64,000 nucleotides of DNA from Fibrobacterota bacterium (lineage in GTDB: Bacteria; Fibrobacterota; Fibrobacteria; UBA11236): assembly GCA_947482115.1 (NCBI GenBank), contig CANKII010000005.1:62001-126000 (forward strand), in the 5' to 3' direction. The notes beneath the pieces are model-generated. The model saw only the letters and a program-made list of their open reading frames with translations. It was not told the DNA's origin and made no database searches. The number at the start of each line of letters is the position of its first letter. Within the stretch, counting starts at the first letter, position 1. Shown in pieces: positions 232 through 7,467 of the stretch. The position numbers and the translations under genes are program-made.

Positions 232-1070
232 AAAAAGGGAATGACTTTCGCCTTGTCGTGGATATCGGTAACACGCATACCGTGATTGGATTGTTCCAGG
301 GTGCGAAAATTCAACGCAACTGGCGGCTGGCAACGCGCAAAGACACGACGGTGGATGAAATCGCGTTCTGGTTACAGGGATTGAACCTTGTAGGGGCGAC
401 CCACCCTTCGACTACGCTCAGGGACCATGGGTCGCCCCTACAAGGTTCGGCATTGGCATCCGTGGTGCCAACGCAGGATAACGCCTGGTTGTCCGCCATG
501 GAAAATGTGTTCGGGATAAAACCCCGCATCCTCAATTACAAGGATTGCCTGGGCCTTAAACTCGATTATGAAATCCCCAGTCAAATCGGTGCGGATCGAC
601 TGGCCAATGTATTGGGAGCCGAGGCTTTGGGAATTAAAGAAGGTGTCATCATCGATTTTGGAACCGCCACCACTTTCGACGTGTTTGCGAACCACACCTA
701 TTACGGCGGTGTCATTTGCCCGGGCATTCAAACCGGTTTGCGGACTCTAGTACAAAGCACCGCCAAACTCGCCGAGCCGGAATTGCGGTGGCCGAAGCAG
801 TCCGTGGGGCGAACCACGGATGAAGCTTTACGCATCGGCATTTTGCACGGCTCGCTGGGCATGATTGAAAGCCTGTTGAAGAATATTCTTGCCGAATCTT
901 ATTTCGGAAAAAAGAAGCCCGTGGTGATTGCCACGGGAGGGTTGGCGGTTTGGATGCGCGATCACACCAAGGCCATTCAGCGCTTCGAACCGGATTTGAC
1001 ATTGGCGGGCATCAATCATTTGCTGTCCGGAAAAACCCCGGTGGGTTCCACACGAAGGAGTGCAAAGTGA
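228..1070 (+). CDS. coaX: Type III pantothenate kinase
   Basis: The 280-residue protein should phosphorylate pantothenate in the first step of coenzyme A synthesis. It shows the phosphate-binding start [15 protein letters not shown] (residues about 9-23), the [11 protein letters not shown] motif and the [12 protein letters not shown] motif, all diagnostic of CoaX rather than CoaA. Its start overlaps nadC and its stop overlaps the next gene by 4 bases. A 66-base palindromic element (383-448) sits in frame and encodes about 22 residues ([19 protein letters not shown] region) between the N-terminal subdomain and the following strand. This makes the protein longer than the usual 250-260 residues. 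The key motifs are intact, so it is probably functional. Confidence 0.93.
383..448. repeat. GTAGGGGCG-type palindromic element inside coaX
   Basis: Left arm 383-403 and right arm 428-448 are perfect 21-base inverted copies around a 24-base loop. The core is GTAGGGGCGACCC. The outer part of the arm (GAACCTT) is not found in the other copies. The loop holds a second small inverted motif, CCCTTCGAC...GCTCAGGG (404-423), which recurs elsewhere. The element is 66 bases, so the coaX frame is kept. Confidence 0.9.
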
Positions 1071-1999
1071 AAATTCTGGTCACTGGCGGAGCGGGATTTT
1101 TAGGCTCTCATTTGTGCGAGCGGCTCCTCACCGAGGGTCACGATGTCGTTTGCCTCGACAATTTTTTCACAGGCACTAAAAACAATGTGCGGCATTTGCG
1201 CGAACACGCCTCCTTTGAACTGCTCCGTCACGATGTGACCATGCCGTTGTTCATCGAGGTCGATCGCATTTACAATCTGGCCTGTCCGGCATCCCCCGTG
1301 CATTACCAGTACAATCCGGTCAAGACCATCAAGACCAGTGTCATGGGCGCCATCAACATGCTCGGCCTCGCCAAACGCACGAAAGCCCGCATTCTTCAGG
1401 CCTCCACCAGCGAAGTGTACGGCGATCCGCAGGTGCATCCACAGCGCGAAGATTATTGGGGAAACGTGAATCCCATTGGAATCCGCTCCTGCTACGACGA
1501 GGGCAAACGTGTGGCGGAAACCCTGTTCTTCGACTATCATCGCCAGAATCAGGTGGACATTCGCGTCATGCGCATTTTCAATACCTACGGACCGCGCATG
1601 CATCCCGATGACGGCCGCGTGGTTTCCAACTTCATCGTGCAGGCATTACGCGGTCAGGACATCACAATCTACGGCGATGGTTCGCAAACGCGCTCCTTCT
1701 GCTTCGCATCGGATTTGATCGACGGCATGGTGAAGTTGATGAATCATCCTTCCTGCGTGGGCCCAGTGAATGTTGGAAATCCGGTGGAGTTCACCATCAA
1801 ACAATTAGCGGAGCAAGTGATTGCCCTGACCGGAAGCAAAAGCAAGTTAGTTACCAAACCGCTTCCCAGCGATGATCCGAAACAACGCCAGCCGGATATT
1901 TCACTGGCACGGAAAGAATTGGGATGGGAACCGAAGGTTCCATTGAAAGATGGCTTGGTTCAGACCATTGCGTATTTTGAAAAATTATTGGCGGTGTAA
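1067..1999 (+). CDS. UDP-glucuronate decarboxylase (UDP-xylose synthase)
   Basis: A short-chain dehydrogenase/reductase of 310 residues, expected to convert UDP-glucuronate to UDP-xylose for surface polysaccharide. The nucleotide-binding [10 protein letters not shown] lies at the N-terminus, and the CYDEGKR segment gives the catalytic Tyr-x3-Lys. The segments LACPASP and [18 protein letters not shown] match the UXS/SDR family closely. I place the start at GTG 1067, preceded by AAGGAG at 1055-1060 and overlapping the coaX stop (GTGA). The upstream in-frame ATG at 950 would add 39 unrelated residues. It is the third gene of the nadC-coaX operon. Its 3' end overlaps the convergent bioC by 15 bases. 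Confidence 0.9.
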
Positions 2000-2776
2000 C
2001 AGCGCCACCCACGGTTTCCATGTCAACGGCACACCACCGAGTTCTGAAAAACGGCCGGTGTATTCTGCAATCAAATGATTCAGATTTTTCCTGTTGAGCC
2101 GGCCGCCCTCACGGGGATCACGGGTGGAACCCAGAACCTGAAGACGATGCAAGACATCCAGCGTTGAAGGCAGAATTTCTTTCTCTTCCCAATCCTGAAT
2201 CGCAACCACTTTCCATCCCGAATGAGCCGCCGCCATTTCAACGGATTTGGGATCGTGGCCCGGAAAGGTTTGATAGGAGAAAGGCGCTTCGGCAAGCAAC
2301 TCATTCAACTCGGAAAAGTTGGAATGGGAGAAACCGGAAAGGAGGTAAGCTCCATCCGATTTCACAAGTTTGATTGCGAATCTTAAGTGCTTTTCAAGAT
2401 TGGGAAACCACTGAATCAAAGCGTTGGAAGCAATCAAATTATATGGACTTATAGAAACTACTTCTGAAGCCGGATTTTCTATTCCTTGAGCATCTTGAAA
2501 CACAAATTTTGGACTGCCGCTTTCATTCACAACACATCGTTCTTTAGCCTGCTCCAACATGGCAGGAGCCGCATCCGTGGCCAAAAGCATGGCTTCGGGA
2601 AATCGTTGCTGCAACCGCCGTGTCAGAATCCCCGTACCGCATCCGAATTCGAGAATATTTCCAGGAGCCGAACCGTTCCACAAACCCAATAATCGATCCG
2701 CCATGCGGGACTGAATATCCGCACCGGATTCATAGCGCGAAGCCGAACGATTAAAACGCAGGGCATGGAAGGACAT
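1985..2776 (-). CDS. bioC: Malonyl-[acyl-carrier protein] O-methyltransferase
   Basis: A class I SAM-dependent methyltransferase with motif [16 protein letters not shown] and the BioC-style start [19 protein letters not shown]. BioC methylates malonyl-ACP so that the fatty acid machinery can build the pimeloyl chain. The context confirms it: bioD, bioF and bioH lie upstream on the same strand. The start at 2776 follows a purine-rich GGGGGAGAG. An in-frame start at 2806 would overlap the preceding methyltransferase gene. It is cut off from the other biotin genes by three restriction-modification-like genes. Confidence 0.88.
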
Positions 2777-2789
2777 CTCTCCCCCGCCC

Positions 2790-3656
2790 TCAATAATTCC
2801 GGACAATGATTTCCCTGACCGCCCCGCGCGCCGAGGATTTGGAATTTATCGCACGGGTTGCATTGACTTTCTGCAATTGTTTCTTCATTCGATAATGTTT
2901 GAAAAGCTCCAAAATGAAATCGGAATAGGAATTAGAAAGCATGACAAGGCATTTCTTGTGAGCCAACTCCGCAAAAACATCTTTCAGTTTTCGTTGTTCC
3001 GTTTCCCCAAATCCGCTTTTTTCATACGCAGAGAAATTGGCCGTGCTGGAAACCGGGTGATACGGAGGATCGAAGTAAATGAAATCCTTGGGTTTGGCGG
3101 AACGAAGAATGGCGTCGAAGGACTGAAGGCGAATCGATACGCCTTTCAAAGCTTCGGCGCATAACCGCAAATTTTCCTCGTCGCAAATCTTGGGGTTCTT
3201 GTAACTTCCGAAGGGAACATTGAATTGGCCCTTGGAGTTCACCCGGTATAAACCATTGTAGCACGTTTTGTTGAGATAGATCAGTCTTGAAGCACGTGCG
3301 ACCTCATCAAGATTTTTGGGATCGGCACTACGCAGCCGGTAGTAATACTCTTTGCTGTGTACATGTTTTTTCAAAGACTTGATCAACTCCTCGACCTTTG
3401 TTTGCACCACGACATAAGCATTGATCAACTCCGGATTCAAATCCGATAGATAAGCCTTCTTGAATCGTTTCTGTCCTGCCAATTCAAAGAACAAAGCGCC
3501 GCCACCGAGAAAAGGCTCATGATACGAACTGATTTTTTCAGGCATCCCTTTCAACAATTCATCGATGAGTTGGCGTTTTCCACCCACCCATTTGAGAAAA
3601 GGTTTGGCCTGCTTGGGCGCTTCACCGCTTTGGGTGATTTTGGATTTAGAAGGCAT
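2790..3656 (-). CDS. Dam-family DNA adenine methyltransferase (intact copy)
   Basis: A D12-class N6-adenine methyltransferase of 288 residues, predicted to methylate adenine in a short palindrome such as GATC. All family motifs are present: FLKWVGGKRQL (SAM binding, about 20-30), PFLGGGALFFEL (48-59), NKTCYNGLYRVN with GQFNVPFG (129-150, the DNA-contacting hairpin), catalytic DPPY (196-199), and INSKSSARG near the C-terminus. The start MPSKSK matches the start of its paralog at 4848. An in-frame extension to 3704 overlaps the nuclease gene and looks non-coding. It lies 20 bases after the nuclease gene and 13 bases before bioC. Its last 15 bases are identical to those of the paralog, which indicates duplication. 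Confidence 0.92.
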   Translation of the reverse strand: MPSKSKITQSGEAPKQAKPFLKWVGGKRQLIDELLKGMPEKISSYHEPFLGGGALFFELAGQKRFKKAYLSDLNPELINAYVVVQTKVEELIKSLKKHVHSKEYYYRLRSADPKNLDEVARASRLIYLNKTCYNGLYRVNSKGQFNVPFGSYKNPKICDEENLRLCAEALKGVSIRLQSFDAILRSAKPKDFIYFDPPYHPVSSTANFSAYEKSGFGETEQRKLKDVFAELAHKKCLVMLSNSYSDFILELFKHYRMKKQLQKVNATRAINSKSSARGAVREIIVRNY

Positions 3657-3676
3657 GAAAAAGCTGGAGATTAAGG

Positions 3677-4066
3677 TTAGAGGACAAAGTACAACTTGAG
3701 CCAATCCACGAGGTCTTCAAGTTCCACAACGATACCGGTGGCGATGAGATACCCTCGCATATTCTCCGAGAAACCGGGACCATCGATGACCACAAGTCCG
3801 CGAATGGGCCAGGCCTTGATGTCTTCAATCGTGGCGGGGATTTTCTCCTCGGCTGTTCCCGTGGTTCCCTGAAACTTGCATTCCAAACCCAGCTTGAGTT
3901 TGGATTTCAGTTCGGTGAGCACCACGTCGATGCGCCGTTGCGGGCCCCAGATTCGCCGCCCGACTTTGACTTCAGTGCGGCATTCCAATCCGAGTGAAGT
4001 GGCGAGTTCCACAACGGCCTTTTGTAATTCCTGCCCGTTGGCAACGGCTTGCGCTCTTCCCGGCAT
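3677..4066 (-). CDS. Small PD-(D/E)XK nuclease, likely restriction endonuclease
   Basis: A 129-residue protein with a PD-(D/E)XK core: RIDVVL provides Asp47 and LECKFQ provides Glu62-x-Lys64. These are followed by GTAEEKIPATIEDIKAWPI and a GLVVIDGPGFS strand, a pattern I recognise from short nucleases found beside Dam-type methyltransferases. The ATG overlaps the TGA of the upstream methyltransferase-like gene (TGATG), so the two are translationally coupled. The intact methyltransferase follows after 20 bases, giving M*-R-M order. The inferred role is restriction of DNA lacking the modification. It could alternatively be a nicking or DNA-damage nuclease, since it is much smaller than DpnII-type enzymes. 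The longer upstream frame to 4414 is only antisense overlap. Confidence 0.8.
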   Translation of the reverse strand: MPGRAQAVANGQELQKAVVELATSLGLECRTEVKVGRRIWGPQRRIDVVLTELKSKLKLGLECKFQGTTGTAEEKIPATIEDIKAWPIRGLVVIDGPGFSENMRGYLIATGIVVELEDLVDWLKLYFVL

Positions 4067-4848
4067 CAATAATTCCGGACGATGATTTCCTGAACGGGTT
4101 CCGCCGATTTGACCAGAGACGGAATCGCGACAACCTCCGGGACGTAATCCTTGTAATGCTTCTTGGTATGAGGCGTACAGGAATTCGAAAGCAACAGGAA
4201 GCATTTCTTGCGATCCAACGCTTCGAACACATCCTTCAACCGGCGATGATCCTGTTCGCCGAAGTGCTTGAAATCCTCGGAGTCCTTCGCCACCCTTTTC
4301 GAAAGCGGATAATACGGCGGATCGAAATAAATGAAATCGCCCTTGGTCACATCCCGCATGACGGCGTAATAGGACTGACGGCGAATGGTGACGCCTTTCA
4401 AAGCTGCGGAACACAGGCGCAGATTTTCTTCGTCAAAAACAACGGCCTTCTTGCCGCCAGCCTGGTTGAGATAAATAAAACGCGAAGCGCGTTCTATGAC
4501 ATCCATCTCCGCAGGATCCAGACTGGAAATCTGGCGATAATATTCACGGCTGTTCAACCCGGCATGTTTTTTCAGGGAGACGATTAATTCTTCCACCCAC
4601 GTTTGAACTGCGACATAGCTGTTGACCAAGTCCTCGTCCAAATCGGAAAGGTATGCCAGTTGAAAACGCTTGCGTTCGGCCAGTTCGAAGAAGAGCGCGC
4701 CGTTTCCCAAAAAAGGCTGGTGATAACTCTTGCAATAAAATCGCGGAAGACGTTTCACCAACTCAACCAGCAATGCCGGTTGAACTCCCAACCCTTTAAG
4801 AAAAGGCTTGGCCTGTTTCGGTTCAACAGGTTTTGATTTGGTGACCAT
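4066..4848 (-). CDS. Degenerate Dam-like methyltransferase paralog
   Basis: A 260-residue paralog of the methyltransferase at 2790-3656, alignable from KQAKPFLK to EIIVRNY. The SAM-binding motif is altered: WVGGKRQL becomes GLGVQPAL, losing the second Gly and the Lys. PFLGGGALFF reads PFLGNGALFF. The whole NKTCYNGLYRVN/GQFNVPFG block is gone (FIYLNQAGGKKAVVFDEENL), as is the C-terminal INSKxxARG motif. DPPY is kept (176-179). The frame is open with no stops. It is therefore either an early pseudogene that has kept its frame, or a protein kept for another role such as a partner subunit of the coupled nuclease. The start at 4848 is chosen by alignment with the paralog; an earlier start would run into bioH. 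Confidence 0.85.
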   Translation of the reverse strand: MVTKSKPVEPKQAKPFLKGLGVQPALLVELVKRLPRFYCKSYHQPFLGNGALFFELAERKRFQLAYLSDLDEDLVNSYVAVQTWVEELIVSLKKHAGLNSREYYRQISSLDPAEMDVIERASRFIYLNQAGGKKAVVFDEENLRLCSAALKGVTIRRQSYYAVMRDVTKGDFIYFDPPYYPLSKRVAKDSEDFKHFGEQDHRRLKDVFEALDRKKCFLLLSNSCTPHTKKHYKDYVPEVVAIPSLVKSAEPVQEIIVRNY

Positions 4849-4865: not shown

Positions 4866-5579
4866 TCAAAAGGAGCCGGGAAATATAGCCCCGCCAACCA
4901 AACGCTGCAGGCTGGTGCGAATCAATTCCGGGCATTCCCAGAAAGGCAGATGTCCGCCTGCATAATCCGTCCGCACAGCCCTAGGCGGAAGGGTTTCCAT
5001 CCCGCGATCCGGAGCCAGAAGATCCTGATCTCCAAACAGCAATTCCCACCGATCCGGAACGGAATGTAGCGTGGAAGTCTCGACCACAATGTCTTTGAGA
5101 AAATCCAGCCCTTGAATCAGTTCTGCATCGGAATAATTCCGCGCTCCCGCAATCCAGTTTTCCTCCCACTCGGCAGGAATGACCCCCGCCTTGGGCATGC
5201 GCCGCCAGAAGTCGCGCAGCACCGCTTCCCGATGGGCAATCAGTTTCTTTTCCATCTTCAGAATGATGGGTTCGCCGAATCCGCCGGGACGGAGAAACCG
5301 GAAGACCGGACAGAGGGACAGCAATGGCAAATCCTGCGGCCATAATCCCTGCGCAATCCAATGATGGGCCAACAGAGTTCCCATGGACCAACCTGCGACG
5401 ACATTCCCCCCAACTCCCTGAGGGGGGAATAAAACACCCGCCTCGGCGGGCGTTTTATTCAACAAGGCATGTGTGTCGAGAAAGCGATGTTCAAAATCGG
5501 GGAACAGTTCGCGCAGCTGTTTTTCCCAGCAGGACAGGGACGAAGCCCACCCGCCCAACCAATGAATCGTAGGCTTCAT
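4866..5579 (-). CDS. bioH: Pimeloyl-ACP methyl ester esterase-like hydrolase
   Basis: An alpha/beta hydrolase of 237 residues with the nucleophile elbow GWSMG (Ser66), a GDQDLLAPDRG acid region and a C-terminal GGHLPF histidine. Sitting between bioF and the rest of the biotin operon, it is best read as the esterase that releases pimeloyl-ACP from its methyl ester. Similarity to BioH itself is modest, so it may be one of the alternative esterases. The ATG overlaps the bioF stop (ATGA). Residues about 40-60 (NKTPAEAGVLFPPQGVGG) are encoded by two hairpin repeats lying inside the gene at 5403-5460. The reading frame survives. Confidence 0.75.
   Translation of the reverse strand: MKPTIHWLGGWASSLSCWEKQLRELFPDFEHRFLDTHALLNKTPAEAGVLFPPQGVGGNVVAGWSMGTLLAHHWIAQGLWPQDLPLLSLCPVFRFLRPGGFGEPIILKMEKKLIAHREAVLRDFWRRMPKAGVIPAEWEENWIAGARNYSDAELIQGLDFLKDIVVETSTLHSVPDRWELLFGDQDLLAPDRGMETLPPRAVRTDYAGGHLPFWECPELIRTSLQRLVGGAIFPGSF
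5403..5460. repeat. Two overlapping hairpins inside the bioH-like gene
   Basis: Hairpin 1 pairs ATTCCCCCC (5403-5411) with GGGGGGAAT (5422-5430). Hairpin 2 pairs GAATAAAAC-CCCGCC (5427-5442) with GGCGGG-GTTTTATTC (5445-5460) with one mismatch. They share the GAAT at 5427-5430. The block is read in frame by the hydrolase gene and encodes a low-complexity loop just before the nucleophile strand. Confidence 0.8.
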
Positions 5580-6766
5580 GCTTTCGAGGCACGTTCTAAA
5601 GCATCTGCAAGACTGAGCACATCTTCTTCGGTGAAAGCAGCCGTCATGTTCAATCGCAAACGCGAAGTGCCTTCGGGAACCGTGGGAGGACGAATGGCAG
5701 GGGCGTGAATACCCTGTTTCAAAAGCGATTGCGAGATGGACACGGCAGCTTCAGGTGTTCCCAATCGCACGGGGACAATGTGACTTTCCGAAGGACCCAA
5801 ATCGAAACCACGGCGCCGGAATTCTTCGCGGGCAAAGCTCGCGATTTCCTGCAACCGTTTTGGCCTCCACGCTTCTTCACTGTTCTGCACGGTTTCCAAA
5901 GCGCCGAGATTCACTCCAAGCACGGAAGGCGGAAGCGAAGTGCTGAAGATGAATCCACGTCCGAAATTGATGAGAGTGTCGATCACTTCCGCCGGTCCCG
6001 TAGCATAGGCGCCAAAACTTCCCAAGGCTTTTCCGAAAGTTCCCATGAGAATGACTTGATCCGGCAACCCCTGCAGTCCGCGCATGTGCAAGTCGGGATA
6101 ACAACCGGTGGAATGTGCTTCATCCAACAGCAACCAGAATCCGTACCGCTTTTGCAAGGCGGCCAATTCTTCCAACGGAGCAAAATCGCCATCCATGCTG
6201 AACAGGGTTTCCGTCACCACCAACCCGCCCTGTTTCGGTTGATGCTTGCGCAACAATTCTTCCAGATGATTCAGGTCATTGTGCTTGAAGCGATGAAAAG
6301 GTTCTTTCGATAATCGCAATCCCTCGGCCACGCTGGCGTGAGCCAGTTTGTCCGCAAAGACCCCTCCCAACACATCCCCCAAGGTGGAAACCAAAGTGAG
6401 ATTGGCCTGAAACCCGCCATTAAATAACAGGGCTTTACTCAATGGACGATAATGACTTAGGGCAAGTTCTAATTCCTCATGCAACGGAAGGTTTCCACCG
6501 AGTAAACGCGAACCGCCGCTTCCCGTTCCGAAATTTTCGATGGCTTCGATGGAGCGTTTCTTTAGATGCGGATGACCGGCAAGGTCGAGATAATTGTTGG
6601 AGGCGCAGTTGAGGCAACGCACGCCGTTGCGCTCAATCCATTTCGACGGCGCATGCGTCAAGGCGGTGAGGGAACGGAGCAGGCCTTTTTCACGCTGCTT
6701 TTGTAAGACGGCGGCGAAAGGGTGGTCCCTGAGCCCCGTCGAAGGGTTCACGGAGTTCCCCACCAA
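5576..6766 (-). CDS. bioF: 8-amino-7-oxononanoate synthase
   Basis: A PLP-dependent alpha-oxoamine synthase that condenses pimeloyl-ACP with alanine to give the KAPA precursor of biotin. The motifs are LNCASNNYLDLAGHP, GTGSGGSRLLGG, LLLDEAHSTG and the PLP-lysine segment LMGTFGKALGSFG. The length is 396 residues. The start is uncertain: the frame opens with TTG/GTG codons inside the end of bioD. The first residues (NPSTGLRDHP) are encoded by a dispersed CCCTGAG...GTCGAAGGG repeat at 6727-6746, so the true start may be displaced by this insertion. Confidence 0.93.
   Translation of the reverse strand: MVGNSVNPSTGLRDHPFAAVLQKQREKGLLRSLTALTHAPSKWIERNGVRCLNCASNNYLDLAGHPHLKKRSIEAIENFGTGSGGSRLLGGNLPLHEELELALSHYRPLSKALLFNGGFQANLTLVSTLGDVLGGVFADKLAHASVAEGLRLSKEPFHRFKHNDLNHLEELLRKHQPKQGGLVVTETLFSMDGDFAPLEELAALQKRYGFWLLLDEAHSTGCYPDLHMRGLQGLPDQVILMGTFGKALGSFGAYATGPAEVIDTLINFGRGFIFSTSLPPSVLGVNLGALETVQNSEEAWRPKRLQEIASFAREEFRRRGFDLGPSESHIVPVRLGTPEAAVSISQSLLKQGIHAPAIRPPTVPEGTSRLRLNMTAAFTEEDVLSLADALERASKA
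6727..6746. repeat. CCCTGAGCC...GTCGAAGGG short repeat at the bioF 5' end
   Basis: A 20-base imperfect inverted motif of the CCCTGAGCnTGTCGAAGGG kind. Related copies are seen in the coaX element loop (404-423), at 7927-7944, 8298-8314, 23050-23068 and 39573-39587. This copy lies at the bioD-bioF overlap and is translated as part of bioF. Confidence 0.65.
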
Positions 6767-7467
6767 GCTTTCAATCCATCACCGAGCGAACGGGCGAACA
6801 GCAATGCCACGGCAGGAGACAACGGCAACCGTTTGTGGAGACCGGGGCAATACGGGACAAGGCCGAAATAATGAGTCGGGATCATGGCCTTCAACGAGGT
6901 GACATTGTCGCTGTAAACTGGAGGAAGATCGGGCGTGGTTTGCGACATGACAAAACCCGCGATGCGCGCGCCGCGCGAGACAAGGAAATGCGCAGTCGTT
7001 CTTGTTTGATGCAATGCGCCGAGACCCGGCTGGCTGACGATGAGACACGGCCATTCGGCTTTGGCGGCGAGTTCGGCGAGAGATAATCCTTCGCGGGTAA
7101 ACGGCGTTGCTGCGCCTCCGGCTCCTTCGATGACGAGCAGGTCGCAACGCTCAGCGGCGGCGGAAACCTGTTCGTAAATCCATTCCGGGTCGATCCATGC
7201 GCCGGTTTTTTCTGCGGCGAGATGTGGAGACACGGGGTCTTGAAAGGTGTAGACGGAAGAGATGGAAAACGCACTGGGCTGGGCTTCTTCAATCCAGTCG
7301 GCGTCGCCTTGAAAATGTTCGGGGTCCTGAATCCGGGAGCCGCATTGCACAAGCTTGATGTATCCGGCGCGAAGGCCCATTTCCTTGGCCCACAGCAGAA
7401 TGGCGAGGGAAACGGCGGTTTTGCCCACTTCGGTGCCGGTGCCGGTGACGCAGAGGATTTTACTCAT
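6748..7467 (-). CDS. bioD: Dethiobiotin synthetase
   Basis: A 239-residue ATP-dependent carboxylase that closes the ureido ring of dethiobiotin. The N-terminal P-loop variant VTGTGTEVGKTAVSLA is diagnostic, and VIEGAGGAATPF supplies the second conserved region. It is the first gene of the operon bioD-bioF-bioH-(cassette)-bioC. The bioA and bioB genes are not in the window. It overlaps the bioF frame by 19 bases. Confidence 0.93.
   Translation of the reverse strand: MSKILCVTGTGTEVGKTAVSLAILLWAKEMGLRAGYIKLVQCGSRIQDPEHFQGDADWIEEAQPSAFSISSVYTFQDPVSPHLAAEKTGAWIDPEWIYEQVSAAAERCDLLVIEGAGGAATPFTREGLSLAELAAKAEWPCLIVSQPGLGALHQTRTTAHFLVSRGARIAGFVMSQTTPDLPPVYSDNVTSLKAMIPTHYFGLVPYCPGLHKRLPLSPAVALLFARSLGDGLKAWWGTP

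What the first reader, a model, noticed from the sequence alone, without database searches (positions are those of the whole stretch)
2790..4848. Restriction-modification-like cassette embedded in a biotin operon
Seen: a degenerate Dam-like protein, a coupled 129-residue PD-(D/E)XK nuclease and an intact Dam-like methyltransferase sit between the bioH-like gene and bioC, all co-directional and spaced by 17, -1, 20 and 13 bases. Known: R-M genes are usually carried on mobile segments with their own promoters, and bioC normally joins other bio genes. Inferred: the cassette is co-transcribed with biotin synthesis, so its expression may follow biotin status, or it arrived by insertion and was kept as an operon passenger. 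I do not know of a described system of this kind.
Basis: partly seen in the sequence, partly recalled or inferred. Interest (0 to 1): 0.75.

Follow-up and report, generated by a model that had tools for sequence, protein, structure and literature searches.

The report
Restriction-modification genes inside a biotin operon
A small bacterial DNA-cutting and DNA-marking gene set, of a kind that moves between genomes, has landed between two vitamin-making genes; the landing site looks accidental, but one of its three genes is a duplicated DNA-marking enzyme that has lost its working parts and yet has been kept readable.

Summary
Between bioH-like (4866-5579) and bioC (starts at 2776) lie three co-directional genes: a degenerate DpnM/Dam-class methyltransferase (dam1, 4066-4848), a 129-aa PD-(D/E)XK nuclease (nuc, Pfam PDDEXK_11, 3677-4066) and an intact DpnM-class adenine methyltransferase (dam2, 2790-3656). 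Two of three genus-mates, and outgroups, have bioF-bioH-bioC joined without the cassette. Nuc homologues sit beside a Dam methyltransferase in six loci from at least four phyla, and more distant ones beside a different, beta-class methyltransferase in 38 of 43 loci. Genus-mate G002 has a 76%-identical nuc at another site, empty here. So dam2+nuc is best read as a mobile type II restriction-modification module inserted into an operon, a described phenomenon. Nothing ties it to biotin: the biotin ligase has no room for a repressor domain, and no BirA-like operator was found. The unusual part is dam1, sister to dam2 but fast-evolving: it lost 25 of 60 near-invariant residues, including the target-recognition hairpin, yet stayed open over 260 codons (neutral simulation P about 0.001). 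It is probably a non-methylating paralogue, function unproven. GATC is not depleted; specificity and activity are untested.

The parts
4066..4848 (-). dam1: degenerate DpnM/Dam-class (D12) methyltransferase paralogue, 260 aa, open frame
   Evidence: PF02086 5.2e-26 in two stretches; closest solved relative DpnM 2dpm by sequence and by predicted fold; sister to dam2, support 99/98, branch 1.18 vs 0.076; 25 of 60 near-invariant residues lost
4064..4068 (-). TGATG: dam1 stop overlaps nuc start by one base (probable translational coupling)
   Evidence: sequence
3677..4066 (-). nuc: 129-aa single-domain PD-(D/E)XK nuclease, candidate restriction endonuclease
   Evidence: PDDEXK_11 PF20472 1.4e-18; D47, E62, K64, Q66 invariant in 28 homologues; AF2 model pLDDT 89.5, best fold matches are remote PD-(D/E)XK-type proteins
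2790..3656 (-). dam2: intact DpnM-class adenine-N6 methyltransferase, 288 aa
   Evidence: TIGR00571 299 bits; DpnM 2dpm E 6.5e-68, full length
1985..2776 (-). bioC-like gene, downstream flank (ATG 2776 after GGGGGAGAG)
   Evidence: TIGR02072 134.5 bits, below cut-off 184.95; start conserved with G001 and G003
4866..5579 (-). bioH-position alpha/beta hydrolase, upstream flank
   Evidence: Abhydrolase_6 5.2e-06; conserved between bioF and bioC in G001, G003, G010
5576..6766 (-). bioF-like gene
   Evidence: TIGR00858 380 bits, below cut-off 426
6748..7467 (-). bioD
   Evidence: TIGR00347 108.5 bits, above cut-off

Best explanation
A horizontally acquired type II restriction-modification module inserted between bioH and bioC. 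dam2 methylates adenine at its site (GATC expected from its DpnM/Dam class) and nuc, a minimal PD-(D/E)XK restriction endonuclease, cuts unmethylated DNA. The module moves as a nuclease-methyltransferase pair and was kept in the operon because the insert preserves the frames and tight spacing of the bio genes and is probably read by the upstream transcript. dam1 arose by duplication of dam2 (or of a dam-nuc unit), then lost DNA-recognition and cofactor-binding residues; it no longer methylates, but its reading frame has been kept, perhaps for translational coupling to nuc or as a binding partner. Shown: gene content, order, empty sites, conserved pairing, paralogy, loss of motifs, open frame. 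Inferred: enzymatic activities, GATC specificity, co-transcription, any function of dam1.
For: Families and motifs. Empty bioH-bioC junctions in G001, G003, G004, G010. nuc beside a Dam methyltransferase in L043, L044, L045, L046, L047 and G010/L069, in different orders, orientations and contexts. More distant nuc homologues beside a PF01555 methyltransferase in 38 of 43 loci. G002 nuc, 76% identical, lies between orf103 and a membrane-protein gene, a site empty in G000. nuc under purifying selection between the two: dN 0.18, dS about 3, saturated. dam1-dam2 sisters. Neutral drift to the observed identity (about 53%) would leave no stop in only 0.001 of simulations.
Against: GATC is not depleted in the genome by a codon-shuffle null (0.99), so there is no sign of long-standing GATC restriction; the Markov value of 0.86 is not exceptional among palindromes. 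G002 shows nuc without any detected methyltransferase of PF02086 or PF01555, though its assembly breaks inside bioF and lacks bioH and bioC, so a dam gene there could be missed. nuc has no solved or named restriction-enzyme relative.
Confidence: 0.75

Rival explanations
1. Biotin-coupled defence: the cassette is in the biotin operon for a reason and is expressed according to biotin status.
For: Co-directional, tight spacing, no minus-strand promoter-like site found between 1900 and 7800.
Against: Cassette absent from bioH-bioC in G001, G003, G004, G010; same pair elsewhere in unrelated contexts; G002 carries nuc behind panB-orf103 instead; biotin ligase of 235 aa without room for the repressor domain, no BirA-like operator.
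Confidence: 0.06
2. On dam1 only: it is a retained non-methylating subunit that binds nuc, dam2 or DNA and controls or directs cleavage.
For: Frame kept over 260 codons despite heavy loss of catalytic and recognition residues; model still folds as DpnM (pLDDT 85.6, TM 0.77); overlaps the nuc start.
Against: Found in one genome only; the other Dam-paired loci have one Dam each and need no such partner; no conservation test possible.
Confidence: 0.3
3. On dam1 only: it is simply a decaying duplicate, caught before its first stop codon; only its stop codon next to nuc matters.
For: Branch about 15 times longer than that of dam2 and loss of near-invariant residues, as in relaxed selection.
Against: Fully neutral decay to this divergence gives an open frame in about 0.1% of simulations; a long selected phase followed by recent decay is not excluded.
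Confidence: 0.5
4. nuc has left the R-M role and works alone (repair or other DNA cleavage), with dam genes as neighbours by history.
For: G002 holds nuc, conserved at the protein level, with no methyltransferase found.
Against: Pairing with methyltransferases of two unrelated classes across phyla; G002 assembly gap at bioF-bioH.
Confidence: 0.12

Closest known systems
DpnII / MboI-type GATC R-M systems (DpnM + DpnA + DpnB)
   Same: Methyltransferase of the DpnM class in a cluster with a nuclease; two methyltransferase-like genes in one cluster (DpnII locus: PMC3573125).
   Different: Nuclease is PDDEXK_11, with no match to the DpnII endonuclease family; the second methyltransferase gene is a degenerate Dam-class paralogue, not a single-strand methylase like DpnA; specificity unproven.
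Operon insertion of R-M systems, as described for the PabI family
   Same: R-M genes co-directional inside a metabolic gene cluster; mobility seen by comparing relatives (PMC4615327).
   Different: PabI is a DNA glycosylase; host cluster here is biotin synthesis; three genes instead of two.
PDDEXK_11 nuclease + PF01555 methyltransferase pairs (Polyangia, Cyanobacteria, Acidobacteria)
   Same: Homologous nuclease (about 30-45%) directly beside a DNA methyltransferase.
   Different: Beta-class DPAY methyltransferase, mostly upstream of the nuclease, rather than a Dam-class one; longer C-terminus of the nuclease.
Dam + DUF6997 pairs in the same family (G004-G009)
   Same: Dam-class methyltransferase with a co-directional partner.
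   Different: Partner is a protein of about 420 aa (DUF6996/DUF6997/DUF7226 in L035), not related to nuc by any family match.

Membership tests
Type II restriction-modification system | intact site-specific DNA methyltransferase gene | tested here: met
   dam2 matches DpnM over its full length and keeps all 60 near-invariant residues
Type II restriction-modification system | adjacent endonuclease gene with an intact catalytic motif | tested here: met
   PDDEXK_11, D47/E62/K64/Q66 invariant among 28 homologues
Type II restriction-modification system | nuclease and methyltransferase genes linked across unrelated genomes | tested here: met
   Dam beside nuc in all 5 close-group loci outside the genus and in L069; PF01555 methyltransferase in 38 of 43 distant loci
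Type II restriction-modification system | same recognition site for both; cleavage blocked by methylation | not testable with these tools
   needs enzyme assays
DpnII/MboI family | DpnM-class methyltransferase | tested here: met
DpnII/MboI family | DpnII-type endonuclease | tested here: not met
   only PDDEXK_11 above cut-off
DpnII/MboI family | beta-class second methyltransferase (DpnA) | tested here: not met
   dam1 is D12 class; no PF01555 match anywhere in G000
DpnII/MboI family | GATC specificity | tested here: inconclusive
   class predicts GATC; no GATC depletion by codon shuffle
Operon-inserted R-M module | empty site in relatives | tested here: met
   G001, G003, G004, G010 junctions
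Biotin-regulated gene set | BirA-type repressor and operator | tested here: not met
   no operator match; 235-aa ligase; other regulators not tested

The most novel reading that the evidence does not exclude
dam1 is a methyltransferase turned into a non-catalytic partner: after duplication inside an R-M module it shed its recognition hairpin and cofactor residues and is kept as a subunit or regulator, translationally coupled to the nuclease.
Probability: 0.25. Interest if true: 0.55.

Novelty: new variant of a known kind. Interest (0 to 1): 0.33.

Why it matters
It points to PDDEXK_11 as a restriction-endonuclease family without a described member in the libraries searched: it pairs with two unrelated methyltransferase classes and has no good model in the defence library. 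It also gives a clear case of an R-M module inside a metabolic operon with empty sites in congeners. If dam1 is functional, it would be a case of a Dam enzyme losing catalysis while being retained in an R-M module.

Tried and rejected
GATC avoidance as evidence of restriction: a Markov null suggested depletion in G000 and G002 (0.86, 0.84), but a synonymous-codon shuffle removed it (0.99, 1.00), so it is not used. Nuclease in phage or plasmid records: no match. Solved relatives of nuc by sequence: none; by fold only remote PD-(D/E)XK proteins. Terminal repeats or an insertion-element signature at the cassette ends: only dam1-dam2 paralogy and a 32-nt repeat at the two dam 3' ends, which may be a trace of duplication but is not decisive. 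Promoter and terminator scan: no more sites than in shuffles, none promoter-like on the minus strand. RNA families: only a tRNA-Val. 'Lone nuc in G002' as proof of a non-R-M role: not accepted, because the assembly is cut inside bioF and lacks bioH and bioC. Papers naming PDDEXK_11: none found.

Full report
Observation. The window carries, on the minus strand, bioD (6748-7467), bioF (5576-6766), a bioH-position hydrolase (4866-5579), dam1 (4066-4848), nuc (3677-4066), dam2 (2790-3656) and bioC (ATG 2776 to 1985). The dam1 stop and nuc start overlap as TGATG. The bioF and bioC matches score below their curated cut-offs, but the gene order bioF-bioH-bioC is conserved in relatives.

What the parts are. 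dam2 is a full-length DpnM-class adenine methyltransferase (2dpm, E 6.5e-68). nuc is PDDEXK_11 with D47, E62, K64 and Q66 invariant in 28 homologues. Its predicted structure (pLDDT 89.5) is a single small domain whose best fold matches are remote PD-(D/E)XK-type proteins. dam1 is a paralogue of dam2: sister with support 99/98, with an end branch of 1.18 against 0.076. It lacks 25 of 60 residues that are near-invariant among 13 intact Dam proteins; dam2 keeps all 60, and intact members, each scored against a set defined without it, lose 0 to 15. The losses include W, G and K of FLKWxGGK and ten residues of the NGLYRVNxxGxFNVPFG segment, which in E. coli Dam contacts the target bases (that role is from general knowledge, not tested here). 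Motif DPPY and the FxGxG motif remain. The model still folds as DpnM.

Is dam1 a pseudogene? Its frame is open over 260 codons. A simulation of neutral drift from dam2 to the observed amino-acid identity left no stop in 0.1% of runs; dN/dS of the pair is about 0.19, with dS near saturation. So most of its history was probably under some protein-level constraint. A recent loss after a long selected phase cannot be excluded, and only one genome has it.

Comparative evidence. The genome has three congeners in the collection. G001 and G003 have bioF-bioH-bioC joined with no cassette, as do G004 and G010. G002 has a 76%-identical nuc between orf103 (behind panB) and a membrane-protein gene; those neighbours adjoin in G000. 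No PF02086 or PF01555 methyltransferase was found in G002, but its contig ends inside bioF, and bioH and bioC are missing, so this is inconclusive. A pattern scan of the collection of 84,980 species genomes gave 50 nuc loci. The close group outside the genus (about 54-64%: L043 Armatimonadota, L044 Hydrogenedentota, L045 and L046 Chloroflexota, L047 unnamed) and the Fibrobacteria locus L069 (= G010, 37%) all lie beside one Dam gene, in either order or convergent. The distant group lies beside a PF01555 methyltransferase in 38 of 43 loci; one of the exceptions is cut by a contig end. In the class, only 3 of 126 genomes have PDDEXK_11. This is the distribution of a mobile R-M module.

Link to biotin. 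No BirA-like operator was found. The two ligase-family proteins in the genome are a 235-aa biotin-ligase-like protein that begins directly with the catalytic domain and a lipoate-ligase-like protein. Promoter scans show nothing above chance. [quoted passage not shown] movement of an R-M system within a genome has been shown experimentally (PMC3031569).

Activity. Restriction of GATC over long times should deplete GATC. With a synonymous-codon shuffle, G000 and G002 show no depletion (0.99, 1.00), while five relatives of the same class but another family show strong depletion (0.38-0.60). So the module is recent, weak, of another specificity, or inactive; this is open.

Conclusion. dam2+nuc is best read as a type II R-M module of an undescribed nuclease family, inserted by chance into the biotin operon. 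The unusual feature is dam1, a probably non-methylating Dam paralogue with a maintained frame. Mechanism of the pair: inferred, confidence 0.75. Function of dam1: undecided between decay and a partner role.

Noticed in passing
window 385-446 (inside coaX, 228-1070): In-frame palindromic insert of about 60 nt in coaX (TTGTAGGGGCGACCCA...TGGGTCGCCCCTACAA), folding at -44.5 kcal/mol (z -9.4); its core CCCTTCGAC...GCTCAGGG recurs in the window only at 6727-6746, near the bioF start.
   Followed up: partly
L174-L188 (G011, G013, G018, G019, G021): GATC is strongly depleted (codon-shuffle O/E 0.38-0.60) in relatives of the same class but another family, not in the window's genus.
   Followed up: partly
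L035, L036, L037, L038, L039, L040: Family relatives carry a Dam-class methyltransferase co-directional with a protein of about 420 aa; the L035 one is DUF6996/DUF6997/DUF7226, a candidate restriction partner.
   Followed up: no
window 2783-2814 and 4059-4090: 32-nt repeat, 91% identical, at the 3' ends of dam2 and dam1, running past the stop codons; possible trace of a dam-nuc duplication.
   Followed up: partly
L031:6735-7441: In G002 the nuc start lies 5 bases behind orf103, a conserved 103-aa gene without a Pfam match that follows panB across the family.
   Followed up: yes
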